DNA from: Lachnospiraceae bacterium
GTDB lineage: Bacteria > Bacillota > Clostridia > Lachnospirales > Lachnospiraceae
Length of the DNA: 64,000 nt
Assembly: GCA_021770755.1 (NCBI GenBank)
Contig: JAETQI010000020.1
Span: 1-64,000 of the forward strand
Direction: 5' to 3'
Within the stretch, counting starts at the first letter, position 1; the number at the start of each line of letters is the position of its first letter. The notes beneath the pieces were generated by a model that was not told the DNA's origin, did no database searches, and worked only from the letters and a program-made list of their open reading frames with translations. Position numbers and translations under genes: made by a program. Positions 316 to 61,639 of the stretch are shown piece after piece.

Positions 316-406
316 AATTGAGTAGGGAAATGCTTTCTCCACCACTCGCCGCGCAGGGCACCCGTCAGCGTCCACTGACATATTTCCTTTGGGTACCCGT
401 ATGCAT
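316..406 (+). repeat. Dispersed two-hairpin repeat, copy A
   Basis: Hairpin 1 runs from GAGTAGGGAAA (320-330) to CTCCACCACTC. Hairpin 2 has outer arms GGGCACCC (356-363) and GGGTACCC (391-398) around an inner GTCAG/CTGAC stem. Between the inner stem and the right outer arm is the conserved unpaired stretch ATATTTCCTTT. The unit ends in TATGCAT. It is a diverged member of the family also seen at 18.7, 34.0, 50.2, 60.2 and 61.6 kb. Confidence 0.85.
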
Positions 407-509
407 ATAAAATATTTAATATGCAAAGTAACAGATACCTACTTGAACATCTTCAAAACTATTGATCCGTAATTGTTCCGCTGACCAATCCTCTAAGAAA
501 TTCCCATAA

Positions 510-536
510 ATCCCCTGCCAGACGGCAGGGGATTTT
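510..536 (+). terminator. Rho-independent terminator
   Basis: A perfect 10-bp stem, ATCCCCTGCC (510-519) and GGCAGGGGAT (524-533), with a four-base loop is followed by a short T tract. It would end the transcript of the partial gene at 1-303, after repeat copy A. Confidence 0.85.
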
Positions 537-567
537 AAACATAAAATTGTAACATAAATTTTAGCAT

Positions 568-618
568 ATATTGCACCTGATTCAGAACATAAAATATCAT
601 TATATGGAGGTGCAATAT
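568..618 (+). promoter_or_regulatory. Inverted repeat covering the SD and start codon of the RHH gene
   Basis: ATATTGCACCT (568-578) is perfectly complementary to AGGTGCAATAT (608-618). The right arm contains part of the Shine-Dalgarno GGAGG (606-610) and reaches the ATG at 617. In mRNA the hairpin would hide the ribosome site. As DNA, the palindrome could be an operator for the RHH protein itself. The sequence alone does not choose between these. Confidence 0.6.
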
Positions 619-814
619 GACAAATGATAATTTGGTGATAAAGCCCAAGAAAGCAAAAGGCGAGGACGGTTACAAGGTTTTCTCAATCAGAATCAGAGAA
701 GAAATTGTTGCACAGATCGACAATATATCTGCCAAAACGGGACACAGCAGAAATGAACTCATAGGAACTTTTTTAGCGTATGCTTTAGAAAAATGCATTA
801 TCGAAGATAAATAA
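617..814 (+). CDS. Small ribbon-helix-helix DNA-binding protein
   Basis: This 65-residue protein has a CopG/Arc-like layout: a basic N-terminus, a predicted beta strand (YKVFSIRIREEI, about 20-31), then two helices with the turn GHSRNELI. It starts at ATG 617 after GGAGG. A paralogue with the same KGEDGYKVFSIR core is on the other strand at 2068-2271, and the two flank the Rpn-type gene. A role as transcriptional regulator or antitoxin-like partner of the adjacent gene is plausible from fold and position but not shown by sequence. The start region lies in a perfect 11-bp inverted repeat. Confidence 0.8.
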   Translation: MTNDNLVIKPKKAKGEDGYKVFSIRIREEIVAQIDNISAKTGHSRNELIGTFLAYALEKCIIEDK

Positions 815-898
815 TATTTGCAGACATATATAATACTTGCCATCATTTTATCTTCATGGTAAAATAAACACAAAACAGACGGCAGGCGGTGACAAGCT

Positions 899-1969
899 AT
901 GTTGACAAACAACGACATGAGTAAAACAGAAGAACAGTTATATGAACCTATTCCAGCACTAAAGAAATCTGTATACGGAAGTGGAAACAGAGAATATAAA
1001 TCCCGCCTGTTCAGTTTCCTCTTTGGACGTGAAGAAAACAAACATTGGACGCTGTCTCTCTACAATGCGATTCATGGAACCTCCCATAGTGATCTCTCCT
1101 GCATAACGATCAATACCATCGAAGATGTAGTCTATATGGGTATGAAAAATGACTTGTCTATCCTTGTATCTGAGATAATCAGCCTGTACAAATCCATTGA
1201 GGTATATGAGCAACAGAGTTCATATAATCCAAACATGCCTGTCCGTGAATTCATGTATGCTGGAAAATTGTTTCAAAAATATATACTCCTTTCAAAATTA
1301 AATATATATGGTAAATCCCTACTACCACTTCCACTGCCGAAACTCGTTGTTTTTTATAATGGCGAAAACGAACAAGAAGATGAAGTCACTCTGCGCCTCT
1401 CCGATGCATTCAAAGAAGAAATTCGTCGGAATATAATAATCAGAGACGCTGAAAACAAAAAAACATCAGATGACACTGAAATATCCGCTGAAGTAGATAG
1501 AATTTTTAAAAAAGCTGATCCCGATATTGAAGTAAAAGTTCGAATGCTGAACATCAACTACGGACATAATAAAGAACTTCTCTCCTCATGCAAACCACTC
1601 GAAGAATATGCATGGTTTATATCACAAGTTAGAAAAAACCATGAAATTAACAATAATAACCAAAATAAAGAACTTTTAGAGATTGGCGTTGCCATCGACC
1701 AGACAATTGATGAAATGCCAGAAGATTTTATTATTAAGGATTTCATAATGTCAAACAGAGCGGAGGTGAAAGATATGTGCCTGACTGAATACAATGAAAC
1801 AGAAACTATGGAAATGATACGAGAGGAAGGTTTACAAGAGGGAATATTACTTAGTATCCAAAATCTAATAGATAGTACTGGCTGGGATGTTAATCAAGTT
1901 ATGAATATGTTAAAAATCCCTTCAAGCCAACGTGCTGCTCTCTATGCCAGTCTATCAAAAATGATATAG
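899..1969 (+). CDS. Rpn-type PD-(D/E)XK nuclease/putative transposase
   Basis: This 356-residue protein resembles the Rpn (recombination-promoting nuclease)/PD-(D/E)XK transposase family common in Lachnospiraceae. An N-terminal segment RLFSFLFGREENKHW precedes the nuclease core MKNDLSILVSEIISLYKS then EVYEQQS, with the family's spaced acidic and Glu-x-Gln residues at about 80-105. The KLVVFYNGE strand follows at about 150-158. The C-terminus carries the EEGLQEGI-type helix typical of the family. Start 899 is preceded by GGCGGTGA; an in-frame ATG at 917 is an alternative. It sits between two paralogous RHH genes, which may be its regulators. Confidence 0.8.
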   Translation: MLTNNDMSKTEEQLYEPIPALKKSVYGSGNREYKSRLFSFLFGREENKHWTLSLYNAIHGTSHSDLSCITINTIEDVVYMGMKNDLSILVSEIISLYKSIEVYEQQSSYNPNMPVREFMYAGKLFQKYILLSKLNIYGKSLLPLPLPKLVVFYNGENEQEDEVTLRLSDAFKEEIRRNIIIRDAENKKTSDDTEISAEVDRIFKKADPDIEVKVRMLNINYGHNKELLSSCKPLEEYAWFISQVRKNHEINNNNQNKELLEIGVAIDQTIDEMPEDFIIKDFIMSNRAEVKDMCLTEYNETETMEMIREEGLQEGILLSIQNLIDSTGWDVNQVMNMLKIPSSQRAALYASLSKMI

Positions 1970-1987
1970 ACCCTATCCCATATTTTC

Positions 1988-2026
1988 AATGGGACTGTCA
2001 CATAAATTAAGACAGTCCCATTCATT
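1988..2026 (+). terminator. Rho-independent terminator
   Basis: AATGGGACTGTC (1988-1999) pairs with GACAGTCCCATT (2011-2022) across an A/T-rich loop, followed by CATTTTA. It lies 19 bases after the Rpn stop codon. It could also serve the convergent RHH gene. Confidence 0.8.
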
Positions 2027-2067
2027 TTAAACTTTATCCTCTAAAACAATTTCAAAAACACTCAAAA

Positions 2068-2271
2068 TCAATCCTTTCCCTCCTCAATCACACACTTATC
2101 CAATGCATATTCCAAAAAAATCCCTATCAATTCATTCCTGCTACGCCCTGTTTTTATCGAAATATTATCAATGCGTGTAACAACCTCATCTCTGACTCTA
2201 ATAGAAAACACTTTATATCCATCTTCTCCTTTTGTTTTTTTAGTTCCTATCACCAATTTATCATCAATCAT
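2068..2271 (-). CDS. Second ribbon-helix-helix protein, paralogue of 617-814
   Basis: This 67-residue protein shares the core KGEDGYKVFSIR, an IDNIS stretch and the TG.SRNELIG turn with the protein at 617-814, so it is a clear paralogue with a CopG-like ribbon-helix-helix fold. It is convergent with the Rpn gene, so the Rpn gene is bracketed by the two copies. The upstream region holds a 16-bp perfect A/T-rich inverted repeat (2314-2359) that could be its own operator. Function as a regulator is inferred from fold only. Confidence 0.75.
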   Translation of the reverse strand: MIDDKLVIGTKKTKGEDGYKVFSIRVRDEVVTRIDNISIKTGRSRNELIGIFLEYALDKCVIEEGKD

Positions 2272-2313
2272 ATTCCACCCCCATTAAGTTACATTTTATG
2301 TTTGATTTTCATC

Positions 2314-2359
2314 ATAGTATATGTTATAATCTATATTATATTTTTATAACATATACTAT
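2314..2359. promoter_or_regulatory. 16-bp perfect inverted repeat upstream of the RHH gene
   Basis: ATAGTATATGTTATAA (2314-2329) is the exact reverse complement of TTATAACATATACTAT (2344-2359), with a 14-base A/T loop. RHH repressors commonly bind palindromes at their own promoters, so this is a candidate autoregulatory operator in the divergent region between 2271 and 2529. Confidence 0.6.
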
Positions 2360-2528
2360 TTTTATATTTACCTACGCATATTACAATTTAAATGTTCTAA
2401 GAATAATAACAAAACAAATTTACTTTCACACATAAAAGGAACTTGCTGTTTCCAATGAATCTTGAATTCAAAACAAGAATTTATTCCTATTCAATTCTTA
2501 GAGCGTATTTGCCAAGGAGAATAATATT

Positions 2529-2888
2529 ATGCCAATACAAACTTTCATCACAGACAAAGAGAGAAAAGCCTGTCAAAAAGTTGCTGACGCATTTGCTGAA
2601 CTGTATGATCAGATTGATATTGTCGTGAAAGACGCTGGAAAATACGGATTTGTCAAACTTTACTGCTTTGAACCCGGCTATGGATTCTATAAAATGACCA
2701 CTTTTACCAACAGCAAAGATCTATTCAATGATCTATGGCAGACATGGTGGCATGAACAGGTCTTTACATTGGCAATCGGAACTCCACTCCTGGATCTTGA
2801 CTATCCCGATATCCTCAGGGCGCTACCAAAAAAGAAACAGAGAAAAATCATGGCAAAAAAAACATACTTTAAGAAAAAATGCCGTTAA
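2529..2888 (+). CDS. Hypothetical protein, 119 aa
   Basis: I do not recognise the family. The start ATG 2529 follows an AAGGAG site. The protein is soluble, opens with a charged helix (DKERKACQKVADAFAELYDQ), has an aromatic middle region (FKMTTF, DLWQTWWHEQV) and a very basic tail (PKKKQRKIMAKKTYFKKKCR) that may bind nucleic acid. It is followed 35 bases later by a 32-codon ORF whose N-terminus resembles this one, so the locus may have arisen by tandem duplication and decay. Confidence 0.65.
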   Translation: MPIQTFITDKERKACQKVADAFAELYDQIDIVVKDAGKYGFVKLYCFEPGYGFYKMTTFTNSKDLFNDLWQTWWHEQVFTLAIGTPLLDLDYPDILRALPKKKQRKIMAKKTYFKKKCR

Positions 2889-2923
2889 CCTGTCCCGCAT
2901 AAATAGCTATAAAGGAGATCCTA

Positions 2924-3022
2924 ATGAAACGAAAAAATTATATCTCTGATGTAGAATACCGAAAATGTAAAAAAGCAGCATCTGTCTTCTCAACATTTGT
3001 AGATGATGATGTTCATTGCTGA
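2924..3022 (+). CDS. 32-codon ORF, probable truncated paralogue of the preceding gene
   Basis: A strong AAAGGAGATCCTA site precedes ATG 2924, and the frame stops at TGA 3020-3022. The peptide MKRKNYISDVEYRKCKKAAS continues VFSTFVDDDVHC. The SDVEYRKCKKAASVFSTFVD part lines up with TDKERKACQKVADAFAELYD of the upstream protein. It therefore looks like a shortened duplicate that kept its ribosome site. Whether the peptide is made or functional cannot be told. Confidence 0.45.
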   Translation: MKRKNYISDVEYRKCKKAASVFSTFVDDDVHC

Positions 3023-3023
3023 C

Positions 3024-3075
3024 AAAAATATCCCTCATTCCAGAACCAAAAGTTCTCAAACAAGGGATATTTTTT
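3024..3075. terminator. Bidirectional terminator
   Basis: AAAAATATCCCT (3024-3035) pairs with AGGGATATTTTT (3064-3075), with an inner AGAAC/GTTCT stem. It is A-rich on the left and T-rich on the right, so it can end transcripts from both sides. It reaches the stop codon of the large vWA gene at 3074. Confidence 0.85.
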
Positions 3076-6000
3076 ACACATTCCGATCGTCCTTTTTCTT
3101 TAACAACTGCGAGGTATCCAGCGTCTGCTCTGCCTGCTTCGGCTTCTTCTGCTTCTTTTGCTTTTTTTCTGGTTTTGACGGTCTCACCGCCTGCGCTTCC
3201 TCCATTTCTGACACTTGTGTCCTATCAGGCTCCTGCCCTGTCTGACGCTTTGCGCTTTTTTCTTTATGCGCTGCCACAAACGGTATCCGCTTTGGCACAT
3301 ACTGGAACCGCCGCATCGCCACATCGATGAGAAACAGGACTACTGCAAGCGCCAACAGCCAGTTTGTCAGCGGATAGCTTTCCTTCGCCGCCGCAGAAAT
3401 CCGCGTCCAGACAGGATCCTGCTCTGTGATGGTTTTTCCGTACTGCCCTGCGAATTTCAGATACGCATCCGTACTCACATCGAATTTATACTCGTCCGAA
3501 AACTGCACCGCCGCCGCGGTGGTCATATAGCTGCGGATCTCCCCGTCTTCGGTGCGTCGTATGTTAAAATGATACAGACCTGTCTGCGGTGTCGGAAGTT
3601 CCGCCGCATATCTGCCGGGTGCTGTCGCATGAAGCTTTTCTTCCGTTACTTCCCCCTTTGGGTCAATGACTGTCACCAGGATCTCCGTCGCACTGCCATA
3701 GTCATTCGTCTGGTATTCGATGTCTGTCCGTTCGCCGGCTGTCACCACATTCACGCTGTCCTCACCGATCCCGGCATTTCCGGCAGCATGATCCACGATG
3801 CGCTTCCACAACTGCACATAATCCTCCTGCCCGGCAAATGCTCCCGTCCACTCGCCGGTGACATCGCTTGTCCACGCTGCTGTCCTGCCCAGTCCGTACT
3901 GCCACACAGTCAGGATCGGATCGCCTTTCTCTCCGGAAACAATCACCGGACTGGAAGCAGTCTTTGGCGTTGCAGAGATATAACCGTAAAGCGCCGGCCA
4001 GCCAGCCGGAAACAGACCGCCCGTCAGCTCATGGTTTGGCTGTACCGACAGGGAAAAAACGCCGTTCTGGATATAGCTGTCGCCTCCTAAGAAAACCTCC
4101 TGTGCAAAGATCCTTGGAATATCGCTGGATTCGTCCGAATAGTAATATCTGCCGCTGCAATTGTCCGCCAGACGCTTCAGCAGTCTTGTGTCCGAGCCGT
4201 CGCCGACCGCCACGGTGGACAACGTGATACCGCCCGCCTCACAGTCACCGATCACGTCCGCAAAATTGTCCGTCTCCCCCATACCGTCTGTCAGCAGTAC
4301 GATATGCCTGATCGAAGCCTCACTTTGGGCGAGCACTCGGACTGCCTCCTGCAGCGCCGGTTTGATCGTTGTACCGCCGCCGTCACTGATCTGTCTGATC
4401 TGATCTTTGATCGCCTCTTTATCGTCTGCCTGCCGAAGTGCCACCTGCCAGTCATACTTGTCGTCAAAAGTCAGAACCCCCACATAGTCCGTGTCATTCA
4501 GATTGTCCGCTGCGACCTCCGCCGCCCTGACAGCAATGTCCAGATTGCTGATGCCATGATTTCCCTCACGCCCCGTCATACTGCCGGAACGGTCGATCAC
4601 CATGACCATCGCCATCGACGGCATCTCGTTCACACCGCGTAGCTGCATATCCACCGGCAGCACCGTCTCCAGCACTGTCCCCCGGTAACCGCCCAGCGCA
4701 AAACTATCCTCACCGCCGCAGCAGATGAAACCGCATCCGTAATCCTTCACGTAAGTCTCCAGATTGTCCAGGAACTTCTCCGGCAGGTCGTCAATGTAAG
4801 TATTGACCAGTATCATCGCCTTGTAATCCAGCATATCATCGATGTTTGCCGGCACATTCCGTGGAGAGACCACATTGTGATCACAGCCCGCCGCACGCAG
4901 CACAGCGGCAAAGCCGGATAGGTCGACATCACGTCCCGCGATGACCAGAACCCTTGGCGGCGTCTCCACCACCGAATAGGCACTGAAAAAGTCATTTTCC
5001 TGACAGGTATCGCCCTGTGCCTGCACCTGCACCCGCAGGTTTTCCGTCGCGCCGCTTGCCGCGGCAGCATCGACCTGTGCACTGAACACAAAACGATTGC
5101 TTCCTTTGTTCAGGTGCACATTGTTTGCCGCCGTCTGACTGCTTCCATTGTAGAGCGCGATCACCGCATCCGTGTCATAATTGCTCTCCACCAGCACCGT
5201 GACAGAATACCGGTCTCCGGGGTGCAGATACGCCGGAAGCGTGACATTGTCAATATAGGCGTCCGGCGTCTCCTCGCTCTCATACAGCAGCGTCAGAAAC
5301 TCTGCCTGGCTTGTTGTCAGCGCCTGCGCCATATTCCGGATATCTCCTCTGGTCTCCTTGCCGTCCGTGAGCACCACCAGCCGTTTGCTGTACTCCCCCG
5401 GGATCATCGTGAGCGCCTTGGAAACTGCCTCCTCAAAATTCGTCGCCGCCTTGTCCGGAAGCGTCATGAGTCCGCCGTAATGCCCATCCGATGTCAAAAA
5501 CTGCTCCACGAGCGTGTCCTTCCCAAAAGTCACAATGCCATAGGCATTCCCGGAAGGCATCTTTGCGACCGTCTCCTGCAGATACTTCTCTGCCTCGCCG
5601 CGATGTGCCTCATTGCTGCTGGAAAGATCCACCACAAAGACCGTCGCAGTCCTGCCGCTGCCCCTGTAGATCCGTATGCCGAAAAGAGAAAGAAGGACGC
5701 ACAGAAACACCACACCGCGCACCCCCAGATAAAATCTGCCCCGATAGCGCATCTGACGCACATAGAACACCCACTCTGTCACTAACAGCACCAATGCCAG
5801 CAGGATAAACAGATGTCTCAGTGTCTGTTTCACCTTCTGCTGGCGCACTGTACCGGAACTGTTTTCCGCAAGCGCTTCCACGTCCGCTGTGATCCTGCCG
5901 TCCGACTCCGTGGCAGTCTGGAAACGCACCACATAATCTTCCTGATAATCCTCACTGCCGATCGTGTACAGACCTGCCCTGCCCGGACGGCTCTCAAACT

Positions 6001-8498: not shown

Positions 8499-9472
<974 letters not shown>

Positions 9473-18674: not shown

Positions 18675-18763
18675 CAATCGAGTAGGGGAATGAATTTCTC
18701 CACTACTCGCGCGCCGGGCACCCGTCAGCGCATGCTGACATTCTTCCTCTGGGTGCCCGTGTG
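18675..18763 (+). repeat. Dispersed two-hairpin repeat, copy B1
   Basis: Hairpin 1 is 18680-18708 (GAGTAG/CTACTC). Hairpin 2 has outer arms GGGCACCC (18716-18723) and GGGTGCCC (18751-18758) with an inner GTCAGC/GCTGAC stem. It ends in CCCGTGTGC and is followed without a gap by B2, giving an 89-base tandem period. Confidence 0.9.
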
Positions 18764-18853
18764 CAATCGAGTAGGGGAATGACCCTCTCTCCTACTCGCG
18801 CGCGACCCGTGCGCCGCACTAGCGGCATATTTCCTCTGCACGGGTCTGTGCAT
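18764..18853 (+). repeat. Dispersed two-hairpin repeat, copy B2 (second subtype)
   Basis: It has the same first hairpin (18769-18797). The second hairpin is built from different paired sequence: outer GACCCGTGC (18804-18812) with GCACGGGTC (18838-18846), inner GCCGC with GCGGC. The unpaired ATATTTCCTCT and the terminal GTGCAT are kept. The unit runs directly into the galK terminator. Confidence 0.9.
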
Positions 18854-18856
18854 AAA

Positions 18857-18888
18857 AAAGTGGAGGTTCTGCCTGAACTCTCCACTTT
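18857..18888 (-). terminator. galK terminator
   Basis: AAAGTGGAG (18857-18865) and CTCCACTTT (18880-18888) pair, extended by GTTC/GAAC. On the minus strand a run of T follows, shared with the A tract at the end of repeat B2. Confidence 0.8.
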
Positions 18889-18907
18889 CCTATGTATATA
18901 CAGATAT

Positions 18908-20140
18908 TTAGATCCTGACTGCGCCGACCGCCCTGATATTCATCGGATAGACATTGCTGTCACCCACATATTTTGCGATGTAATTCACATAGTTGTCAAC
19001 CTCGGCAAGCGGTACGAGACACATGATCACCCCTGCAAATCCGCCGCCGTGCACACGGCAGACACCATCTTTGATCCTTCTTAAAAACAGCTCCGTGAGC
19101 GCGAGCGTCAGCGTGATCTTCTGCTCCTTGCAGTCCTGCAGCGAATAGCAGTTCTGCAAAAGTTCCCACGAGGACGTGCCGGACTCGTTGACAAGCCTCA
19201 ACACCGCATCGATGTCGTCCGCCCCGATCGCCGCAGCCATCTCATCCACCCTGCGGTTCTCCTCAAAGAAATGGATCGCGCGCAGCACTGCCCTGTCGTT
19301 TGGTATCTCATTTATATGGGCGAGCAGATTGTCAAGGTTTGTCTCACACAAAAGCTCCACGCCAAGAACCTTCGCGGCCTCCTTCATCTCATTGGGAATC
19401 CCGGAATACTCCTCGCTCAGATCCGCATGTCCCTTTCCCGTATTCACGATCACAAGGCGGTATCCTTTTTTCTCAAAAGAGAAGGAAAGCGGTCTGTATT
19501 CCGGCTGGCTTCCGTTTGAAAAATCAAAGAGAACCGGACCGCCCACTGCACACGCCATCTGATCCATCATGCCTGACGCCTTATTCCAGTACACATTCTC
19601 CGAGTACTTTCCGATCTTCGCGTAATCTGCACAGCTCATCGCACCATTGTTGAAGAAATGGTTGACGATCGTACACACCAGCATCTCAAACGACGCGGAT
19701 GAGCTGACACCTGCCGCCGCGATCACATTGGTGGATACATAGGCGTCGAAACCGCCGACCTTGAATCCGAACTTCTGTGCGCCCTCCATCATACCGGCAA
19801 GAAGCGCCTCCGTCCCGCTGACCTTCTCAACACTGTCAAGCTTTGCGATATCCACAACGATCTCTTTGTCGTAGCCTTCGCTTGTGATATGGATAACACT
19901 GCTGTTGTTCGCCTGCGCCGCACCGATCGTATCCAGGTCGATGCTTCCCGCGATCACCTTTCCGCCGTTGTGATCCGTATGGTTGCCGATGATCTCCGTT
20001 CTGCCGGGCGCGGAGAAAAATTCGGCCTCATCATGACCATACTTCTTCTTGAAATTCTCCGCCAGCACACGGAAACGCTCCGCGCTCTTTGTGCTCTCAC
20101 CGTAAACCTTTTCCAGTCTCTCACTGCTTGGGATATTCAT
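18908..20140 (-). CDS. galK: Galactokinase
   Basis: Phosphorylates D-galactose at C1 with ATP, the entry step of the Leloir pathway. The 410-residue protein shows the galactokinase signature GRTEIIGNHTDHNGG (46-60), the GHMP ATP-binding loop AAGVSSSASFEM (about 145-156) and the C-terminal motif VHGGGFAGVI (about 363). Its length is normal for the family. AAGGAGG lies nine bases before ATG 20140. It is the last gene of a minus-strand series (coiled-coil protein, CoA-transferase, esterase, galK) with short gaps, and the terminator at 18857-18888 separates it from the sugar ABC operon. Confidence 0.95.
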   Translation of the reverse strand: MNIPSSERLEKVYGESTKSAERFRVLAENFKKKYGHDEAEFFSAPGRTEIIGNHTDHNGGKVIAGSIDLDTIGAAQANNSSVIHITSEGYDKEIVVDIAKLDSVEKVSGTEALLAGMMEGAQKFGFKVGGFDAYVSTNVIAAAGVSSSASFEMLVCTIVNHFFNNGAMSCADYAKIGKYSENVYWNKASGMMDQMACAVGGPVLFDFSNGSQPEYRPLSFSFEKKGYRLVIVNTGKGHADLSEEYSGIPNEMKEAAKVLGVELLCETNLDNLLAHINEIPNDRAVLRAIHFFEENRRVDEMAAAIGADDIDAVLRLVNESGTSSWELLQNCYSLQDCKEQKITLTLALTELFLRRIKDGVCRVHGGGFAGVIMCLVPLAEVDNYVNYIAKYVGDSNVYPMNIRAVGAVRI

Positions 20141-33790: not shown

Positions 33791-33985
33791 ATATCATAAT
33801 GATCCTCTCCTTTCATTTTACCACTTTTTTCAACTTCTTCAACAGTTACTTTTGTTTTGAAAATTAATTTTCTACATTTTTGTTGTTTCAAAAGTTTGTA
33901 CTTTTATATTAACAGTATATTATGCGTTTGTCAACTTTTATTTCAACAATTTTCGAAATATTTTCTTTCATTTCAAAATTTTCTC
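33791..33985 (-). promoter_or_regulatory. Promoter and putative operator array of the hexitol PTS operon
   Basis: On the minus strand TTGACA (33934-33929), a 17-base spacer and TAATAT (33911-33906) form a strong promoter. Around it the motif TTGAAA followed by A-rich sequence (TTTTGAAATGAAAG, TTGTTGAAATAAAAG, CTTTTGAAACAAC, and a weaker GTTGAAAAAAG) recurs, suggesting several binding sites for the DeoR regulator encoded just downstream. Confidence 0.65.
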
Positions 33986-34092
33986 TGGACACCCGTGTGT
34001 AATCGAGCAGGGAAGAGCAATCTTCCCCTGCTCGCGCGCCGGGCGTCCGTCAGCGTATGCTGACATATTTCCTTTGGACGCCCGTGTGCATC
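33979..34092 (+). repeat. Dispersed two-hairpin repeat, copy C, with remnant of a preceding unit
   Basis: The full unit starts at 34001: hairpin 1 GAGCAGGGAAGA (34005-34016) with TCTTCCCCTGCTC, hairpin 2 GGGCGTCC (34041-34048) with GGACGCCC (34076-34083) and inner GTCAGC/GCTGAC. Compared with copy B1, two outer pairs have changed on both sides. The stretch TTCTCTGGACACCCGTGTG just before it looks like the end of an eroded tandem copy. Confidence 0.9.
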
Positions 34093-34127
34093 AAAAAAAG
34101 ACCACGCCATAAAATATGACGCAGTCT
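34093..34127 (-). terminator. Terminator of the AAA/PD-(D/E)XK gene
   Basis: On the minus strand AGACTGCGTCAT and ATGGCGTGGTCT pair, with wobbles, and a run of seven T follows. The T run is the A tract at the end of repeat copy C. Confidence 0.8.
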
Positions 34128-34168
34128 GTCTGATATATTTTGTCGTCAGTATGAAGATACCGCATTGC

Positions 34169-35881
34169 TTACCAGTCCGGCGCTGTCCCTTCCCGAATCA
34201 TGACACAGCAGTCCTTTCCGCAGAATGAGATCCCGTAACTGCTTGCAATGTCATAGCCGTCGTCCTCAAGCTCCAGGATATATCTTTTATCATCGATCTG
34301 CTGCAATGCCTCCTCCGCTTTTTTTTCAAGCTCCCTTATCTTCTTTGTAGTCTTGAATTCCACGATAAACGCCTCTTTCCGGCGCGATACAGGCTTCACA
34401 AACAGATCGCACCTGCCCTTGCCCGTCTCTCGGTTGGATTTTGTGCGGTAGCCTTTCATGCCCGATAACAATCCTGCCACCAGCCCGTGATAGTAATTTT
34501 CACTCTCGTCAAAGGAGCTGATCGTTTCATACAGAATATCCGTCAGTTCCTCCTGCAGCATCTGCGCATCCTTATTGACAAATGCCGTATGCAGCCGGGT
34601 AAGATCACGCTCTTTCATTTTCTGATCAAACCATGCCATGATCTTTTCGCGGAAAATATAACGCACCTCCCGGTTGGGGATCGCAAGCGTCAGATACCGC
34701 GTATCATTCTCTCCCATGCGCTCGTCCACTTTTCTGAAATATCCTGTAAAAAACATGAAATTCCACAGATTGTCCATGTTTTCGTATACTTCGCCATAGG
34801 TAATGTCCTCATGAACGGGCTTTTCGACAGTCCCGCCGTCAATCAGGTTCTCCAGTTCACTCTTTACACTGTCATCCGCCATGTCGATCAGCTTACGCAC
34901 AACCGTATTGGAAGAAGTATTTGCCCAGTACGAATGCGGAAACTCATCTTCATGACTTGTTAAAGCTTTCACATACCGAATGACACTCCACGGATTATAT
35001 ACATTGGTGTTGCCAAAAAGGTATCCGTTGTACCATTCTTTGATCAGGTCGTACTTGTGCTCCAGTGCGCAGTCTTTACAAAGCCTGCGCACTTCCTCCT
35101 CCGTAAAGCCAAAGTATTCATCGTAGTTCCAGTCAAGTATGGATATCACCTCAAGATTATTTAAACCGGTAAAGATACTTTCCTTTGAGATCCGCAGACA
35201 CCCTGTTATCACCGCAAACTCCAGGCTGCTGTTTGTCTTAAAAGCAGACTCAAACAGGGAACGGATAAAGCCTGCCATCTCGTTATAAAAATTCTGCGTG
35301 AACGCATTCTCGAGCGGCACGTCGTATTCATCGATCAGTATGATCGCTTTTTTCCCATAATAAGCTTCAAGGCATTGGGATAAAAACTGAATAGACTGAT
35401 TATAACTGTCTCTGTCTGCCTTGCGCCTCATAATGTTCAGATATTCTTCCTTTTTCTCAGACAGCCCTTCCGCCCGAAGAATATATCGATGACGATAATA
35501 TTCATTAGCGATCTGCCGCCTGATCGCCGCATACGCAAGCTCAAAATCCGGCTGTTTCGCATCCTTTAACGTCAGATTGATCACAGGATAGCGCCCCATA
35601 TGCGCAAGGTAATCCTCCCCCGCCTCCATGATCTTCATCTGTTCAAACAGATAGGCATTGTCCTTTTTTTCGCCGTCATCCGTATGCATATCCTCAAAAA
35701 AATACTGGAGCATGCTCATATTCAGCGTCTTGCCGAAACGCCGCGGACGCGTAAATAGATTGACGCTTCCTTTTTTATCCAATAGCTCTTTCATGAACCA
35801 CGTCTTATCAATAAAATAATATCCTCTTGTTATTAAATGCTCAAAGTTATCAACACCTACCGGCAATGGTTTATGATCCAT
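34169..35881 (-). CDS. AAA-ATPase-like protein with C-terminal PD-(D/E)XK nuclease domain
   Basis: This 570-residue protein belongs to the large DUF1703/AAA-ATPase-like group of Lachnospiraceae and Bacteroides. The N-terminus (LPVGVDNFEHLITRGYYFID, then FTRPRRFGKTLNMSML) gives a Walker-A-like loop near 47, and IILIDEYDVPLE a Walker B near 175. The C-terminal about 100 residues hold a nuclease core: GRCDLFVKP then AFIVEFKTTKK (Asp, Glu-x-Lys near 490-510). These proteins are of unknown function and often vary in number between strains. It is monocistronic. Confidence 0.85.
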   Translation of the reverse strand: MDHKPLPVGVDNFEHLITRGYYFIDKTWFMKELLDKKGSVNLFTRPRRFGKTLNMSMLQYFFEDMHTDDGEKKDNAYLFEQMKIMEAGEDYLAHMGRYPVINLTLKDAKQPDFELAYAAIRRQIANEYYRHRYILRAEGLSEKKEEYLNIMRRKADRDSYNQSIQFLSQCLEAYYGKKAIILIDEYDVPLENAFTQNFYNEMAGFIRSLFESAFKTNSSLEFAVITGCLRISKESIFTGLNNLEVISILDWNYDEYFGFTEEEVRRLCKDCALEHKYDLIKEWYNGYLFGNTNVYNPWSVIRYVKALTSHEDEFPHSYWANTSSNTVVRKLIDMADDSVKSELENLIDGGTVEKPVHEDITYGEVYENMDNLWNFMFFTGYFRKVDERMGENDTRYLTLAIPNREVRYIFREKIMAWFDQKMKERDLTRLHTAFVNKDAQMLQEELTDILYETISSFDESENYYHGLVAGLLSGMKGYRTKSNRETGKGRCDLFVKPVSRRKEAFIVEFKTTKKIRELEKKAEEALQQIDDKRYILELEDDGYDIASSYGISFCGKDCCVMIREGTAPDW

Positions 35882-50087: not shown

Positions 50088-50200
50088 ATGTTCCCCTCCA
50101 TAAACTTATCTTATGCTATCCTTTCACACCATACAATATCATATCATAAAAAAAATCTAAACACAACCGCAAATAAATCCAAAACCGGGCAGAGAAAAAT

Positions 50201-50297
50201 CCGTGTGCAATCGAGTAGGGAAGAGCCATCTTCCCCTACTCGCGCGCGACCCGTGCGCCGCACTAGCGGCATATTTCATCTGCATGGGTCTGCGCAT
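50201..50297 (+). repeat. Dispersed two-hairpin repeat, copy D (second subtype)
   Basis: Hairpin 1 is GAGTAGGGAAGA (50213-50224) with TCTTCCCCTACTC (50229-50241). Hairpin 2 is GACCCGTGC (50248-50256) with GCATGGGTC (50282-50290, one G-T pair) and inner GCCGC/GCGGC. CCGTGTG before it may be the end of an eroded neighbour. It abuts the tRNA-Leu terminator. Confidence 0.9.
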
Positions 50298-50300
50298 AAA

Positions 50301-50335
50301 AAAACCTTGCAGTTATCAGATAACTGCAAGGTTTT
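50301..50335 (-). terminator. tRNA-Leu(CAG) terminator
   Basis: AAAACCTTGCAGTTAT (50301-50316) pairs perfectly with ATAACTGCAAGGTTTT (50320-50335) around a three-base loop. The T tract on the minus strand is the A tract at the end of repeat copy D. Confidence 0.92.
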
Positions 50336-50337: not shown

Positions 50338-50421
50338 TGCAGGAGATGGGACTTGAACCCACACGGTATTGCTACCACAGGCACCTGAAGCCTGCGCGTC
50401 TGCCAATTCCGCCACTCCTGC
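50338..50421 (-). tRNA. tRNA-Leu(CAG)
   Basis: The minus strand folds as a class II tRNA of 84 bases: acceptor GCAGGAG/CTCCTGC, anticodon stem CAGGC/GCCTG with loop TTCAGGT (anticodon CAG, reading CUG), a long variable arm, T arm GTGGG-TTCAAGT-CCCAT and discriminator A. CCA is not encoded. Confidence 0.96.
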
Positions 50422-50635: not shown

Positions 50636-50719
50636 GCGGAAGTGCTGGAATTGGCAGACAGGCAAGACTAAGGATCTTGTGTCGGATACGACGTGTGGGT
50701 TCAAGTCCCATCTTCCGCA
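50636..50719 (+). tRNA. tRNA-Leu(AAG), integration target
   Basis: An 84-base class II tRNA: acceptor GCGGAAG/CTTCCGC, anticodon stem CAAGA/TCTTG with loop CTAAGGA (anticodon AAG, reading CUU/CUN), T arm GTGGG-TTCAAGT-CCCAT and discriminator A. Its last 21 bases are repeated at 58272-58292, marking the left end of an integrated element. Confidence 0.95.
50699..50719 (+). other. Left attachment site (attL) within tRNA-Leu
   Basis: The 21-base sequence GTTCAAGTCCCATCTTCCGC plus A covers the T-loop half and acceptor 3' strand of the tRNA. It recurs exactly at 58272-58292. Confidence 0.85.
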
Positions 50720-55247: not shown

Positions 55248-55262
55248 TTTTCTACCTCCGTT

Positions 55263-56087: not shown

Positions 56088-56094
56088 GCTGTCA

Positions 56095-56550: not shown

Positions 56551-56580
56551 ATCGCTCCTCACTTTCTTATAATGATAGAC

Positions 56581-57063: not shown

Positions 57064-57158
57064 TTTTTATCTGTCCTCTTTTCATTGATTTTTTGAAAGC
57101 ATTTCAATCAGTTTACCAATTCCCGTATATTATGTGTTATAATGTTTTATGTGATTTT

Positions 57159-57242: not shown

Positions 57243-57373
57243 TATAAGGGAAAGCTCACTTGCGATAAACTTAGTGTTTTCAAGGGTTAGTGGGGATTTT
57301 AATAATAAAATATAACAGCTAATGTTTCCCTTAAAAATCATCAAATCACAATCGAAATTTGAAGGAGCAACAC

Positions 57374-57700: not shown

Positions 57701-57759
57701 CTTCCAGTTTATCGGAGAGTTCGGCAAAACAAAAATGAAAATTGAGGAGGATAATATAT

Positions 57760-58119: not shown

Positions 58120-58152
58120 AAAATTCCAGTTTGTTGAATAAAAGCATAAACA

Positions 58153-58187
58153 AGAGGTTGTTAGAAAAAGACCGTCTAACAACCTCT
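58153..58187. terminator. Perfect 13-bp hairpin near the right end of the element
   Basis: AGAGGTTGTTAGA (58153-58165) pairs with TCTAACAACCTCT (58175-58187) around a nine-base loop. There is no T tract. It may end the C39-like transcript or be part of the recombination region. Confidence 0.5.
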
Positions 58188-58225
58188 ACAACAATTACAC
58201 TTTTGGTTACACTCAATTAGCTGAT

Positions 58226-58293
58226 GTGCGGAAAGCTCCTTTCTATGAGAGTTTGCGGCGTGGGGAAATTCGTTCAAGTCCCATCTTCCGCAC
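58226..58293 (+). other. Right attachment site with tRNA-like remnant
   Basis: The exact 21-base copy of the tRNA-Leu(AAG) end is at 58272-58292. GTGCGGAA (58226-58233) pairs with TTCCGCAC (58286-58293) like an acceptor stem around a shrunken, non-functional interior, suggesting a decayed tRNA fragment displaced by the insertion. Confidence 0.7.
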
Positions 58294-58297
58294 TTAA

Positions 58298-58329
58298 CCC
58301 TGGTAAATTCAAAGTTTACCAGGGTTTTT
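58298..58329 (+). terminator. Strong terminator right of the element, probably the ancestral tRNA-Leu terminator
   Basis: CCCTGGTAAA (58298-58307) and TTTACCAGGG (58315-58324) pair around a seven-base loop, followed by TTTTT. It stands five bases after the attR copy, where a tRNA terminator would have stood before integration. Confidence 0.85.
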
Positions 58330-58375
58330 CTTTCTAAAACTTTCTATGTGTTCCTTTTTTACTCGCAAGGCTGCT

Positions 58376-58718
58376 TTACAGTTCTTTGAGCGTTTGACGA
58401 GCATAAGAAAGGAGCATTTCCATGAAAAAAATATCCCTTAAAAACTCAGACAACTTAACCGTGGACGAAGCGTTTGCGGACTTCAAAGGACATTGCCGGA
58501 TTAAAAATCTGTCTGGGGAAACAATTAACTTCTGCCGTAATACTCGTTTCTTCAAAAACCTCCCGAACAGCCGCTTCCTCCGGCAATTCATTTTCATGGC
58601 AAAATCCTCCGGGAATCAGCAATTTCCCCTTTGCTCTGCCGTATGTATGCCTTACAAGCAGGACCTGATTTTTTCTTCTTACAATACAACCTACCGAAAA
58701 ACAATAATTATCATTCAT
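58376..58718 (-). pseudogene. NUDIX hydrolase fragment
   Basis: ATG 58718 (GAGGG upstream) opens a NUDIX domain: YCFSVGCIVRRKNQVLLVRH and the Nudix box GGFCHENELPEEAAVREVFE with ETSI following (about 38-61). The frame stops at 58455. A second frame ending at 58376 (LRDIFFMEMLLSYARQTLKE) may be the shifted C-terminus. The central and late parts are missing, so the gene is probably inactive. Confidence 0.65.
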
Positions 58719-58721
58719 ATT

Positions 58722-59030
58722 TTATCCCTCATTTCCTGTCAATCTGATATTCAGTGTCTCTATTATTTTTTCTGCTACTTTCTCAGGCTGTAAACACGTT
58801 GAATCAATATTGGGATATATTGCCCTTTTTATATTCTCTTCCTTACAACATTTAAGGATAATCGGGCATACCTCAAACAGTATACCATCTTCTCTTAGGC
58901 AGCCAATTACTTGTTCAAATATTTGTTTTCGTTCTCCATGGAAACCATATGAAAAAATAACATATTCTATATCCTCACACAGAAGATCATTTTTGAATAA
59001 TGAATAAATATTATTAGATCCTATAATCAA
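58722..59030 (-). pseudogene. Probable C-terminal fragment of a P-loop nucleotide-kinase-like gene
   Basis: A 102-codon frame without a convincing ribosome site. The sequence LCEDIEYVIFSYGFHGERKQ then IFEQVIGCLREDG, and AIYPNIDSTCLQPEKVAEKI, resembles the second half of small AAA/shikimate-kinase-like proteins. No P-loop is present, so the 5' half appears lost. Family assignment is tentative. Confidence 0.4.
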
Positions 59031-59090
59031 AATAAATTTTTCATTCTATAACACCATATCATTTTTCCTGAAGCAATTAATGATTATAAC

Positions 59091-59320
59091 TCAAAATCTA
59101 ATCGCATTGTTGAGCAGGCTGTCCAGTTCATGAAAATTATTTGCAATATCACCAGCATAAACCTCATGATCCCTGTTGAACAAAACCGTATTGATTCCTG
59201 CCTCTCGTGCCACATTTAAATTTTGCACGCTGTTATCGACAAAGATACACTCCTGCGGAACACATTGAAGATGCTTAATTGAAAAGAAATCATATTTCCT
59301 TTCACAAATATGTATCCGGC
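59091..59320 (-). pseudogene. HAD-superfamily hydrolase, C-terminal fragment
   Basis: Minus-strand sequence encodes CVPQECIFVDNSVQNLNVAR then EAGINTVLFNRDHEVYAGDI and ends at TGA 59093-59091. This is the motif IV region of a HAD hydrolase. No start or upstream catalytic motifs are in frame. A neighbouring frame to about 59410 (FADNPDAGYIFV) may hold more of the gene. Confidence 0.65.
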
Positions 59321-59442
59321 ATCCGGGTTATCTGCAAAGAAATCCGCGATTTCAATATTTCGATTGCAATCATCTTCGGCTTCTTTTAAATCGTCACTAA
59401 ATTCTTCCAGTCCCTTTTTGAAGGTTCAACCATTTTTTTGCT

Positions 59443-59622
59443 CTATAGAACCCTGACTAATATAAATACAACAATAGCATAAAATACCCATGTCCACTTA
59501 TTTCCCAAATTCATTGTATAGCCAAACCCGCTTTGTGGTCTTTTGATAATGACTCTTTTATCTTCTCTGTTGAAATATAGTCTTCCGGTTAACCAGCCAT
59601 CATTCCTATTGCTTGGTCTCAT
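59443..59622 (-). CDS. Small DUF5808-like membrane protein, 59 aa
   Basis: ATG 59622 has a good AAAGGAG site and the frame ends at TAG 59445-59443. The N-terminal half carries a DUF5808-like motif (RLYFNREDKRVIIKRPQSGF followed by GYTMNLGNKWTW). The rest is one membrane helix, VFYAIVVFILVRVL. It is the only intact-looking gene in the debris between 58.4 and 60.2 kb. Confidence 0.65.
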   Translation of the reverse strand: MRPSNRNDGWLTGRLYFNREDKRVIIKRPQSGFGYTMNLGNKWTWVFYAIVVFILVRVL

Positions 59623-59876
59623 AAAGTTCTCCTTTGCAGCTTCCCATTGTGATTTAATATTGTCACTTTATATGCATCTCACTTCCAGTTATATTATATG
59701 TAAATTCCAGTCGGAAAACAACCTATTTTGCATTTTTATCATTGTATATTAAGGGCCATCCGGCACATGGCAATTCACGGTATCTGACGAAAAGCACTTT
59801 CCAAACACGCTCTAATACTCTATCCAGTCTGGAATGAACGACTGTTTTCTTTTCACCGGATTATTTTTTATGCTTG

Positions 59877-60226
59877 CAAATCCAAGACCCGACAAGTAGA
59901 GAAATATCAATATTCTGCCCTGACCATTACATTAACTGGCGATCATAAAGTGATCTACCAGCGTTTTCTGGAATGGGAAAGCAGTCCGGACAGGAACAGA
60001 GGGCATGTTGTGAATGACTGTTATCCGGAAAAGAAAGAAAATCAACAAAAAAACACGAAAATCCACAACGATTTCTTATGAAGCTTTTGTTCATGGGATC
60101 GAACAAAGGGGATTTGATATCTTTTGCGTCGGCAGCAGACAGATCAAGGTCGATACGACAGATTTTTCAAAAATAGATACGGAAGAATTATTGACACAGA
60201 TTAAAACCTGGAAGCGCGGCGAGTAG
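59877..60226 (+). pseudogene. C-terminal remnant of an AAA-type kinase
   Basis: One frame encodes KYQYSALTITLTGDHKVIYQ, RFLEWESSPDRNRGHVVNDC and then YPEKKENQQKN. After a short disrupted stretch (about 60050-60080) the next frame continues ISYEAFVHGIEQRGFDIFCV and GSRQIKVDTTDFSKI. Both parts together look like the lid and C-terminus of a P-loop kinase. There is no P-loop. The frame runs into repeat copy E and stops at 60226. The 59650-59876 stretch shows nothing recognisable. Confidence 0.55.
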
Positions 60227-60253
60227 GAAAGATGGCTCTTCCCTACTCGATTG
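60214..60253 (-). repeat. Dispersed repeat, copy E (hairpin 1 only, inverted)
   Basis: GAGTAGGAAAGA (60221-60232) pairs with TCTTCCCTACTC (60237-60248). The order of flanks (GCGCGGC before, GATTGTAC after) shows it is in the opposite orientation to copies A-D. Hairpin 2 is absent. Confidence 0.8.
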
Positions 60254-60274
60254 TACAAGCATCCTGCACAGCGA

Positions 60275-60511
60275 TCACGCGACTACGTATTTTTCAAGCT
60301 TAAGCAAAAGCGCTTCCCTCTCTTCCATCTCGGCATGGATGTCGAGAAGCAGTGGCTTTCTGCAGTCGCAGCTCAGTACGCCAAGCAGTGATTTTGCGTC
60401 GAGATATGTATTTCTACCGCTGATCAGATCGATATCATACGGAGCGCTCCTCGTGATATCGATAAAATCCCGAACCTTGTCTACTGAATCAAGTAAAACT
60501 TTTACTCCCAT
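60275..60511 (-). CDS. Second Crh-like HPr-fold protein (no His15, Ser46 motif kept)
   Basis: This 78-residue protein has the HPr fold pattern. Its active-site loop is replaced (LLDSVDKVRDF in place of GIHARPA), but the HPr-kinase-type motif DAKSLLGVLSCD is present, with Ser41 matching Ser46. It is related to the protein at 39288-39533 but clearly diverged. AAGGAG precedes ATG 60511. A good promoter and an array of TATGCA motifs lie upstream. A regulatory, non-transport role is predicted. Confidence 0.8.
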   Translation of the reverse strand: MGVKVLLDSVDKVRDFIDITRSAPYDIDLISGRNTYLDAKSLLGVLSCDCRKPLLLDIHAEMEEREALLLKLEKYVVA

Positions 60512-60573
60512 GATGTTCTCCTTTTCTCACTCTAATTATTTTCCGCAACAGTTCGTCCACTGCTACAGCTCCT

Positions 60574-60602
60574 ATTATCGCTTATTTCCGCCCAGTATGC
60601 AA
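60574..60602 (-). promoter_or_regulatory. Promoter of the second Crh-like gene
   Basis: On the minus strand TTGCAT (60602-60597), 17 bases and GATAAT (60579-60574) precede the ATG by about 60 bases. TATGCA or TGCATA occurs repeatedly (60596, 60608, 60650, 60714, 60722), two of them 12 bp apart at the -35. Confidence 0.6.
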
Positions 60603-60808
60603 GCGTTTATGCACTTTTCTCCTTTTTAATGCATTTTATACTATATAAGTATGCAAATTTTGTATATAAATTACATATTTATCTTCATTTTATCGATTTA
60701 TCTACTGTAAACGTGCATATTTATGCATCATCATGTTTTTCATTCTGTTTTGCCCGCCAGATACACTGCTCACTCATCTCAAGCAAAATCAATCATTTAT
60801 ACCGTTCC

Positions 60809-61231
60809 TCACAAATATTTTTTCAGTTCCGCGATGATGGCATCATACGCTGTATCCGAAAGTGTTTTTCGCCCGGGATCCATGGCAAATGTACTGCCCC
60901 ACTCAAAGTCATCATCCCTGTACTTGGGAACCAGATGAAAATGAAGGTGGTGTCCGGTATCGCCATATGCGCCATAATTCACCTTATCCGGCGAAAACGC
61001 CTTGTGAATCGCCTCCGCAACATGATTTACATCGCGGAAAAATGCATTCCGCTCCTCCTCGGAGAGTTCGATCATCTCACTCACATGATGTTTGCTCGCC
61101 ACGATCACCCTTCCTTTGTGACTCTGCTCCCTGAACAGATACACCTTGGACGCATCCAGCTCACAGATCTTGATCCCGAACTTGTCTACAAGTTCCCCTT
61201 CCACACAGTACGCACAGTTGTTGTCTACCAT
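60809..61231 (-). CDS. HIT-family nucleotide-binding protein
   Basis: This 140-residue protein of the histidine-triad family hydrolyses or transfers nucleotidyl groups. It has the N-terminal NNCAYCVEGE (possible zinc pair CxxC) and the triad HHLHFHLVPK (about 104-113), with NYGAYGDTG before it. It is complete, with AAGGAGG before ATG 61231. It forms a minus-strand pair with the small gene at 61263-61559, 31 bases upstream. Confidence 0.93.
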   Translation of the reverse strand: MVDNNCAYCVEGELVDKFGIKICELDASKVYLFREQSHKGRVIVASKHHVSEMIELSEEERNAFFRDVNHVAEAIHKAFSPDKVNYGAYGDTGHHLHFHLVPKYRDDDFEWGSTFAMDPGRKTLSDTAYDAIIAELKKYL

Positions 61232-61262
61232 AATGATATGCCTCCTTATATCTGGTTTATTC

Positions 61263-61559
61263 CTATTTGTTCTTCAATTTTTCAAAATGACGCTGCAAAA
61301 GTTCTACAACCGCATCCTTGTCCTCCATCCGATCCAATATGACGCAGGATCCAAACACGTCATCATACTGAAAGATCAATTTGTACGGATCGCCTTTGAT
61401 CATAAACTGGGCGTCCCCCTCATAGGGCTGAAACGCTTCCTTTCCCATCTCCTCCGCGACGCTCTGCACAAGCAGGCGTATCGGTTCCGAAGCCCAGCCG
61501 TTCGTGTCCAGAACGATCCATCCGTCTTCCTCCGTGATCATATTAATCTTGTATAACAT
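61263..61559 (-). CDS. Hypothetical protein, 98 aa
   Basis: ATG 61559 has AAAGGAG 8-9 bases upstream. The frame is open further up, but only through the repeat region. The soluble acidic protein (MLYKINMITEEDGWIVLDTN, GWASEPIRLLVQSVAEEMG, MIKGDPYKLIFQYDDVFGSC) has no motif I recognise. It probably shares a transcript with the HIT gene. Confidence 0.6.
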   Translation of the reverse strand: MLYKINMITEEDGWIVLDTNGWASEPIRLLVQSVAEEMGKEAFQPYEGDAQFMIKGDPYKLIFQYDDVFGSCVILDRMEDKDAVVELLQRHFEKLKNK

Positions 61560-61587
61560 TTCCAACACTCCTTTACGTGTATGGGGC

Positions 61588-61639
61588 TGCAATCGAATAA
61601 GAAAGAGCCTTCTTCCACTATTCGGGTGCCCGTGTGCAT
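61588..61639 (+). repeat. Dispersed repeat, copy F (shortened)
   Basis: A GCAATCGAATAAGAAAGA start and a weakened hairpin 1 (GAATA/TATTC) are followed directly by GGGTGCCCGTGTGCAT, the right arm and end of hairpin 2. The left arm and inner stem are deleted. It abuts the aldolase terminator in the same way as copies B, C and D abut theirs. Confidence 0.8.

What the first reader, a model, noticed from the sequence alone, without database searches (positions are those of the whole stretch)
316..61639. Dispersed family of about 89-bp two-hairpin repeats with compensatory base changes
Seven units (316-406, 18675-18763, 18764-18853, 34001-34092, 50208-50297, 60214-60253, 61588-61639) share one plan: CAATC, hairpin 1 (GAGTAGGG...CCTACTC), GCGCGC, hairpin 2 with a nested inner stem, the unpaired ATATTTCCTYT, then GTGTGCAT and an A tract. 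Paired bases change together. Hairpin 1 is GAGTAGG/CCTACTC or GAGCAGG/CCTGCTC. Hairpin 2 outer arms are GGGCACCC/GGGTGCCC, GGGCGTCC/GGACGCCC or GACCCGTGC/GCACGGGTC; inner arms are GTCAGC/GCTGAC or GCCGC/GCGGC. Unpaired parts stay constant. This pattern indicates selection or copying based on structure. I know of no named family that matches.
Basis: seen in the sequence. Interest (0 to 1): 0.75.

Follow-up and report, generated by a model that had tools for sequence, protein, structure and literature searches.

The report
Terminator-anchored hairpin repeats in Lachnospiraceae
A family of roughly 90-base two-hairpin DNA repeats is scattered through many Lachnospiraceae genomes, mostly lodged just behind the stop signal (terminator) of a gene, and it looks like a tiny passenger mobile element that copies itself there with borrowed machinery.

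Summary
The genome holds 137 covariance-model matches in 112 chains. 32 of 36 genomes of the genus (own included) and 24 of 173 sampled genera of the order have matches. No Rfam family matched. Across 8 genera hairpin 2 has different arms that still pair (94.6% of cells; all 9 outer pairs changed on both sides) around a nearly constant purine-rich bulge. By a lenient motif test the terminator-side end is kept in 96 of 104 chains; the far end is truncated or altered in up to 61 of 104. None of 24 orthologous sites in one genus has the unit. Terminator-inserted group II introns use the same position; two abut a unit to within a base, and short-form hairpin 1 resembles their 3' end. I read it as a non-autonomous, T-tract-primed mobile element. 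The enzyme is unproven: neither reverse transcriptases nor Y1 transposases track copy number by eye, and G-U counts show no strand signature. New family, unusual target; mechanism open.

The parts
316..406 (+). full unit (H1 + H2), diverged; ends GTATGCAT followed by an AT-rich stretch; no clear terminator
18675..18763 (+). full unit, H2 type A (GGGCACCC/GGGTGCCC), distal member of a two-unit chain
18764..18853 (+). full unit, H2 type C (GACCCGTGC/GCACGGGTC), terminator-side member of the chain
18854..18890 (-). A-tract plus inverted repeat: terminator (read on the minus strand) abutted by the unit; ORF 18908-20140 (-) ends beside it
   Evidence: sequence; ORF
33982..34000 (+). truncated unit remnant (TCTCTGGACACCCGTGTGT) directly before the full unit
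34001..34092 (+). full unit, H1 GAGCAGG/CCTGCTC, H2 type B (GGGCGTCC/GGACGCCC)
34093..34140 (-). A7 tract plus imperfect inverted repeat (only 6 pairs by my test) beside ORF 34169-35881 (-); the orthologous gene in G022 has A7 plus a hairpin and no unit at that place
50200..50207 (+). 8-base remnant (TCCGTGTG) of a truncated unit
50208..50297 (+). full unit, H2 type C
50298..50335 (-). A7 tract plus perfect inverted repeat: terminator of the tRNA gene 50338-50421 (-), abutted by the unit
60214..60253 (-). lone hairpin 1; H2 missing (a case against the polar truncation rule)
61588..61639 (+). internally deleted unit: H1 fused to GGGTGCCCGTGTGCAT; both outer ends kept
61640..61672 (-). A-tract plus inverted repeat (terminator) beside ORF 61694-62677 (-)

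Best explanation
The units are copies of a small non-autonomous mobile element. SHOWN: on the strand of the upstream gene most chains read terminator hairpin, T-tract, (AT), H2, H1, ending CTACTCGATT in the short form; a long form adds a small hairpin H3 and a long palindrome H4 next to the T-tract. The T-tract end is mostly intact, the other end is often truncated at scattered positions, and orthologous sites can lack the unit while keeping the terminator. INFERRED: copying starts at the T-tract. A nick or replication-fork 3' end in the T-tract primes DNA synthesis on a unit template whose 3' end is A-rich, synthesis often stops early (truncation), and jumping to a further template gives head-to-tail chains. 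MORE TENTATIVE: the enzyme is a reverse transcriptase acting in trans, most likely that of terminator-targeting (class C-like, endonuclease-less) group II introns, making this a bacterial analogue of a SINE. My separate estimates: mobile and terminator-targeted about 0.9; T-tract-primed copying about 0.45; group II intron reverse transcriptase as the enzyme about 0.3.
For: 137 matches in 112 chains. At least 3 A in the first 12 bases after 96 of 101 chains with flank; a stem of at least 9 pairs right after it in 42 of 96, against 8.2% of 3000 control A-runs (at 7 pairs 70 of 96 against 35.7%; at 5 pairs no real excess, 85 of 96 against 83.5%). Two relatives, sampled from their best matches: 12 of 26 (G032) and 6 of 11 (G009) readable A-tract sites have such a stem. 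G388: 6 distinct sites of near-identical copies, 5 with stem >=8 by script, the sixth (L306) by eye. The neighbouring gene's 3' end faces the unit in 60 of 72 cases with an ORF within 400 bases. Sites without unit: 24 loci of the G388 genus, no R1 or R2 match; three closer loci of other genomes and two own-genome paralogues. Polarity: T-tract end kept in 96 of 104, far end truncated, preceded by a truncated unit or altered in 61 of 104; of 8 further fragments found by BLAST with whole-unit queries 7 keep the T-tract end by my reading. Group II introns follow a terminator in L177, L178, L179 and a T-run in L181, L375, L376, L378. Intron 3' ends abut a unit in L178 and L388. H1 resembles intron DVI in 5 of 10 sequences, from 4 of 9 genomes (0-4 of 1000 shuffles as good). 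The L177 and L178 intron proteins match RVT_1 and GIIM and no other Pfam family. 13 of 14 unit-bearing genomes outside the genus have an RVT_1 match. Class C introns insert right after terminators and lack an endonuclease (passages of PMC4424553 and PMC8919778).
Against: Reverse transcriptases do not track copies: G032 (at least 72 copies, top pairs 0.98-0.99 alike) has no RVT_1 match at 1e-8; G388, with near-identical copies, has only a non-intron RT next to an RT-5 RNA; G042 has 2 matches and no RVT_1 match; G019 has the intron and no unit at threshold; RVT_1 is found in only 24 of 38 genomes of the genus. H1 of the other 5 sequences is not like DVI, and H2 was not found inside the introns examined. 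No domain V, no ORF. The GAGCAGG/CCTGCTC variants lose the A that would be the branch point. G-U pairs and folding energies show no strand signature, unlike what I would expect of an RNA under long selection. In the window 60214 breaks the polarity rule and 316 has no clear terminator. Fewer than half of own-genome A-tracts have a stem of 9 or more (42 of 96), and several G345/G405 copies have none by eye.
Confidence: 0.4

Rival explanations
1. A TIR-less MITE moved as single-stranded DNA by a Y1 HUH transposase (IS200/IS605 or RAYT type): H2 and H1 are the subterminal hairpins, the T-tract is the left-flank target, no target duplication.
For: Two subterminal hairpins, fixed flank on one side and variable on the other, no obvious target duplication at 6 sites in G388. 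Near-perfect hairpins without a G-U strand signature fit DNA hairpins. Y1 matches are present in 12 of 14 unit-bearing genomes outside the genus.
Against: No credible unit or H2 in the 18 Y1 loci examined, a part of all Y1 matches listed (best 14.2 bits, E 0.49). The RAYT-like genes in L413 and L414 are flanked by a different palindrome. Y1 is not found at 1e-8 in several high-copy genomes (G006, G012, G014, G034) nor at 1e-5 in G315 and G396. Scattered truncation at one end is not expected of precise HUH excision and insertion.
Confidence: 0.22
2. Structured elements kept by selection for a host function beside terminators (e.g. back-up terminator, transcript end protection, sRNA), spread by occasional recombination rather than by transposition.
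For: Strong cross-genus pairing with a nearly constant bulge; consistent placement behind terminators.
Against: Orthologous sites lack the unit; match number runs from 0 to 137 within one genus; near-identical copies at unrelated sites in G388.
Confidence: 0.12
3. The compensatory pattern is produced by hairpin-templated (quasi-palindrome) correction during replication, not by selection; the elements are ordinary mobile repeats.
For: Very few G-U pairs: 2 of 157 paired cells in the cross-genus set; 114 of 2644 forward and 93 of 2647 reverse in 89 units. H1 is homogenised within chains (0.858 in 20 pairs against 0.746 in 4540 pairs between chains, 0 of 5000 resamplings) while H2 type is near random.
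Against: The bulge stays nearly constant while whole arms are replaced across genera, which suggests recognition of the overall shape; correction alone need not keep stem length and bulge position.
Confidence: 0.2

Closest known systems
Class C (IIC) group II introns
   Same: Same target (just after the T-tract of Rho-independent terminators), same orientation, same insertion point to within a base in two junctions, similar 3' terminus in short-form copies. That the introns here are class C is my inference from position and protein domains.
   Different: About 90 bases, no ORF, no domain V, no ribozyme core, H2 absent from the introns examined.
REP / REPIN elements with RAYT transposases
   Same: Short dispersed intergenic hairpins in high copy (recalled for REPs).
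   Different: Two hairpins in direct order, chains in one orientation, no RAYT seen beside units; two local RAYT-like genes carry another palindrome.
IS200/IS605-derived TIR-less MITEs
   Same: Subterminal hairpins, no obvious target duplication, one fixed flank (family features recalled).
   Different: No Y1 element with matching ends found in 18 loci; polar truncation.
Eukaryotic SINEs (recalled, analogy only)
   Same: Short, structured, non-autonomous, A-rich 3' end meeting a T-rich primer site, truncation at the far end.
   Different: Bacterial; no partner enzyme shown; no transcript shown.

Membership tests
Class C group II intron (or ORF-less derivative) | insertion directly after a terminator T-tract in the gene's orientation | tested here: met
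   (not every copy)
Class C group II intron (or ORF-less derivative) | domain V / ribozyme core | tested here: not met
   no Rfam intron match at units
Class C group II intron (or ORF-less derivative) | DVI-like 3' end (CCTACTCGATT) | tested here: inconclusive
   similar in 5 of 10 sequences (4 of 9 genomes), at background in the other 5
Class C group II intron (or ORF-less derivative) | related intron reverse transcriptase in the same genome | tested here: not met
   present in G000 and others, not found at threshold in G032 and G388
REP/RAYT | RAYT gene flanked by the repeat | tested here: not met
   two RAYT-like loci read; no unit in 12 Y1 loci
IS200/IS605 MITE | Y1 element in the clade with the same ends | tested here: not met
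   18 Y1 loci, no credible H2 or unit
IS200/IS605 MITE | no target-site duplication | tested here: inconclusive
   none obvious at 6 G388 sites, but no base-exact empty site
Known Rfam family | match at gathering score | tested here: not met
Integron attC site | recombination by an IntI integrase, R'/R'' core sites | not tested
   considered from recall only

The most novel reading that the evidence does not exclude
A bacterial SINE: a ribozyme-free, gene-free RNA of about 90 nucleotides that is reverse-transcribed into genomes from the 3' end of terminator T-tracts by the reverse transcriptase of terminator-targeting group II introns (or another RT) acting in trans, building chains by template jumping, and having reached over a hundred copies in a genome of Lachnospiraceae.
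Probability: 0.28. Interest if true: 0.88.

Novelty: new variant of a known kind. Interest (0 to 1): 0.62.

Why it matters
Terminators are a safe harbour that class C group II introns are known to use. A much smaller, abundant element sharing that address would show that bacteria carry parasites of retroelements as animals carry SINEs, or else that a second, unknown machinery targets terminators. Either outcome is testable in culturable strains. Practically, up to over a hundred copies sit between genes and terminators in a single genome and could confuse terminator, sRNA and REP predictions.

Tried and rejected
Rfam at gathering and permissive thresholds: nothing credible. Plasmids, phages and one pattern in viral contigs: no match. 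Y1/RAYT partner: presence does not track copies by eye, no credible unit in the 18 Y1 loci examined. Any reverse transcriptase as marker: no clear relation. RT-5 RNA-type RT as partner: found in G388 and G173, not in the scanned RT loci of G345 and G396; the RT loci of G315 and G333 were not scanned for it; left open. H2 as a DIVa-like protein-binding hairpin of introns: not found in 19 intron-type loci. A strand signature by G-U pairs or folding energy: none. A motif inside some long-form H4 palindromes as trace of an autonomous element: four distinct copies in the fetched DNA, no gene. RepRanger and human-microbiome RNA papers: passages read, no mention of this family in them. Limits: the DVI comparison used mononucleotide shuffles, and part of the match follows from H1 being palindromic. 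The T-tract-end test is a lenient motif, while the far-end test counts merely mutated first units as truncated, so 61 of 104 is an upper figure. The covariance searches favour H2-bearing copies; one search checks this with whole-unit BLAST over 392 kb only. No genome-search runs were left for further partner genes.
Full report
1. What is there. The listed coordinates hold five full units, each made of a hairpin H1 (GAGTAGG/CCTACTC or GAGCAGG/CCTGCTC) and a hairpin H2 with a nested inner stem and an 11-base bulge. The copy at 60214-60253 is H1 alone on the minus strand, and 61588-61639 is H1 fused to the tail of an H2. The four full units that I folded give z = -5.3 to -8.0. Consensus motifs exceed all 100 shuffles of the window in three scans.

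2. Size and spread. A covariance model from 25 units of this genome finds 137 matches at E <= 0.001 in the 4.74-Mb genome, forming 112 chains: 91 single, 17 double, 4 triple. Among 60 genomes (own included), 32 of 36 of the genus and 1 of 24 of other families match; G016, G019, G026 and G028 have none at that threshold. In a sample of the order 37 of 392 genomes and 24 of 173 genera match, many weakly (stricter filters). One record, CAMWFQ010000002.1, holds five near-identical tandem starts with period 87, the last cut by the end of the fetched stretch. No match in plasmids, phages or, for one pattern, viral contigs.

3. Structure conservation. On 25 own units RNAalifold gives 23 pairs, 12 with changes on both sides. 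Twelve H2 sequences that I picked by hand from 9 genomes in 8 genera pair in 94.6% of 166 cells, against 62.9% in shuffles and 32-42% when slid; all 9 outer pairs and 4 of 5 inner pairs change on both sides, while the bulge stays close to AGAGGAAATATG (gene-strand reading). That is strong evidence that shape matters or is actively restored. It does not show RNA: G-U pairs are few and nearly equal on the two strands (114 of 2644 forward, 93 of 2647 reverse, 89 units) and mean folding energies are alike (-46.3 and -46.1 kcal/mol), so a DNA hairpin or hairpin-templated correction remains possible.

4. Position. Units in this genome mostly end in GCAT (or a variant) followed by an A-tract: 96 of 101 chains have at least 3 A within 12 bases. 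In 42 of these 96 a stem of at least 9 pairs starts right there, against 8.2% of 3000 control A-runs; at 7 pairs 70 of 96 against 35.7%; at 5 pairs the test does not discriminate. On the other strand this is a Rho-independent terminator whose T-tract touches the unit. The neighbouring gene's 3' end faces the unit in 60 of 72 cases with an ORF within 400 bases; 27 chains had none within 400 and 13 were skipped. In the window this is visible at 18853, 50297 (terminator of a tRNA gene) and 61639, less clearly at 34092, and not at 316 or 60214. In G032 and G009 I took 28 and 12 of their best-scoring matches: 12 of 26 and 6 of 11 readable A-tract sites have stems of at least 9. For G388 I fetched 9 of the 11 matches listed; they are 7 distinct sites, six with near-identical copies, of which five have stems of 8 or more by script and the sixth by eye. 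Seven long-form copies of two other genera also stand beside a hairpin, with stems of 7-13 by script. Several G345 and G405 copies show no such hairpin by eye.

5. Sites without the unit. At 24 loci of the G388 genus orthologous to three of its sites neither model finds a unit; by eye at least half keep an A-tract followed by a hairpin. Closer comparisons for own-genome sites show the flanking DNA without unit at that place: C113:81660 with L216, C45:91115 with L145 and C71:6750 with L297 (other genomes), and two own-genome paralogues, C83:47665 with L102 and C23:27278 with L132. At C113 and C23 the unit-bearing site has more A's than the empty one; at C45 it has one fewer. L297 and L216 carry H2 matches elsewhere in the locus. 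For the window unit at 34001, the G022 ortholog (79% alike) has A7 plus a hairpin and no unit in the stretch read. No base-exact empty site is available.

6. Polarity. Of 104 chains with flanks (8 dropped for lack of flank), the T-tract end passes a lenient motif test in 96. The far end stops at the unit end in 43, carries a truncated extra unit in 34 (7-65 bases of it), and in 27 the first unit itself is truncated or its start is altered. Because the model favours H2, I repeated the search by BLAST with whole units over 392 kb: nine further stretches, one a palindrome artefact; of the other eight I read seven as keeping the T-tract end and five as truncated at the far end. The window's 60214-60253 is an exception.

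7. Link to group II introns. In G000, G007 and G019 a group II intron (Rfam RF02001/RF01998; RVT_1 plus GIIM and no other Pfam family in the L177 and L178 proteins) stands directly after a terminator T-tract; in L181, L375, L376 and L378 the intron follows a T-run. For L176 (G061) the position was not clear. In G000 C15 and G217 C65 the intron's last base is followed at once by a unit, so intron and unit share the insertion point; other introns read had no recognised unit there. On that strand, short-form units end like these introns; local alignment of H1 with intron DVI beats all or all but 4 of 1000 shuffles in 5 of 10 sequences (4 of 9 genomes) and is at background in the other 5. The published rule that class C introns lack an endonuclease, insert just behind terminators and take primers from the replication fork was read in passages of PMC4424553 and PMC8919778. 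End-to-end template switching by intron reverse transcriptases is recalled; one search lists papers that I did not open.

8. What speaks against. The enzyme is not identified. G032 has at least 72 matches, the closest pairs 0.98-0.99 alike, and no RVT_1 match at 1e-8. G388 has near-identical copies and a single RVT_1 match, next to an RT-5 RNA, not an intron. G019 has the intron and no unit at threshold. Over the genus RVT_1 is found in 24 of 38 genomes, outside it in 13 of 14 unit-bearing ones. Y1 transposases do not track copies either (19 of 38 and 12 of 14), have no credible unit in 18 loci, and the RAYT-like ones in L413 and L414 carry another palindrome. H2 was not found in the introns. 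Most genomes used are drafts, so absences are weak; no statistic was computed for these relations.

9. Verdict. A new, large, structure-conserved family of non-autonomous mobile elements with a terminator-anchored, polar insertion pattern: well supported. T-tract-primed copying is the best reading of the polarity. A group II intron reverse transcriptase as the enzyme is the most attractive partner but not more likely than not. I saw no description of the family in the listings, which cover only open-licence papers. That the window's genome is a Lachnospiraceae is inferred from the named records, one of which has the contig length of a G009 contig.

Noticed in passing
L377/L388 (G217 C65): A group II intron appears to be nested inside another group II intron, and the outer intron's 3' end abuts a unit.
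   Followed up: partly
L414 (G388), L413 (G345): RAYT-like Y1 transposase genes flanked by a different palindrome, GGGGACGGGG...CCCCGTCCCC.
   Followed up: partly
L381 (G388), L380 (G173): RT-5 RNA upstream of a reverse transcriptase gene; in L380 a unit with its palindrome stands at the 3' end of that gene.
   Followed up: partly
L230 2740-3236 (CAMWFQ010000002.1): Tandem array: five near-identical unit starts with exact period 87 (the last cut), preceded by a diverged unit, running to the end of the fetched stretch.
   Followed up: partly
own-genome chains (e.g. C64:3419-3599, C113:81660-81931): Neighbouring units in a chain share private H1 variants (mean identity 0.858 against 0.746 between chains) while their H2 type is nearly random, suggesting local gene conversion or in-place duplication.
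   Followed up: partly
L441 and L211 (both appear to be COE1, probably the same copy): A unit of the window's type carrying the long form (H3 plus the TATAGGA...TCCTATA palindrome) seen otherwise in other genera, linking the two forms.
   Followed up: partly
L197 near 7456 (Butyrivibrio MAG): The terminator similar to that at G000 C9:125861 (74% alike) seems occupied by a palindrome of the long-form type: perhaps two different insertions at one terminator.
   Followed up: no
window 50338-50421 (-) and 50636-50719 (+): Two tRNA genes in opposite orientation; the terminator beside the first one carries the unit at 50208-50297.
   Followed up: no
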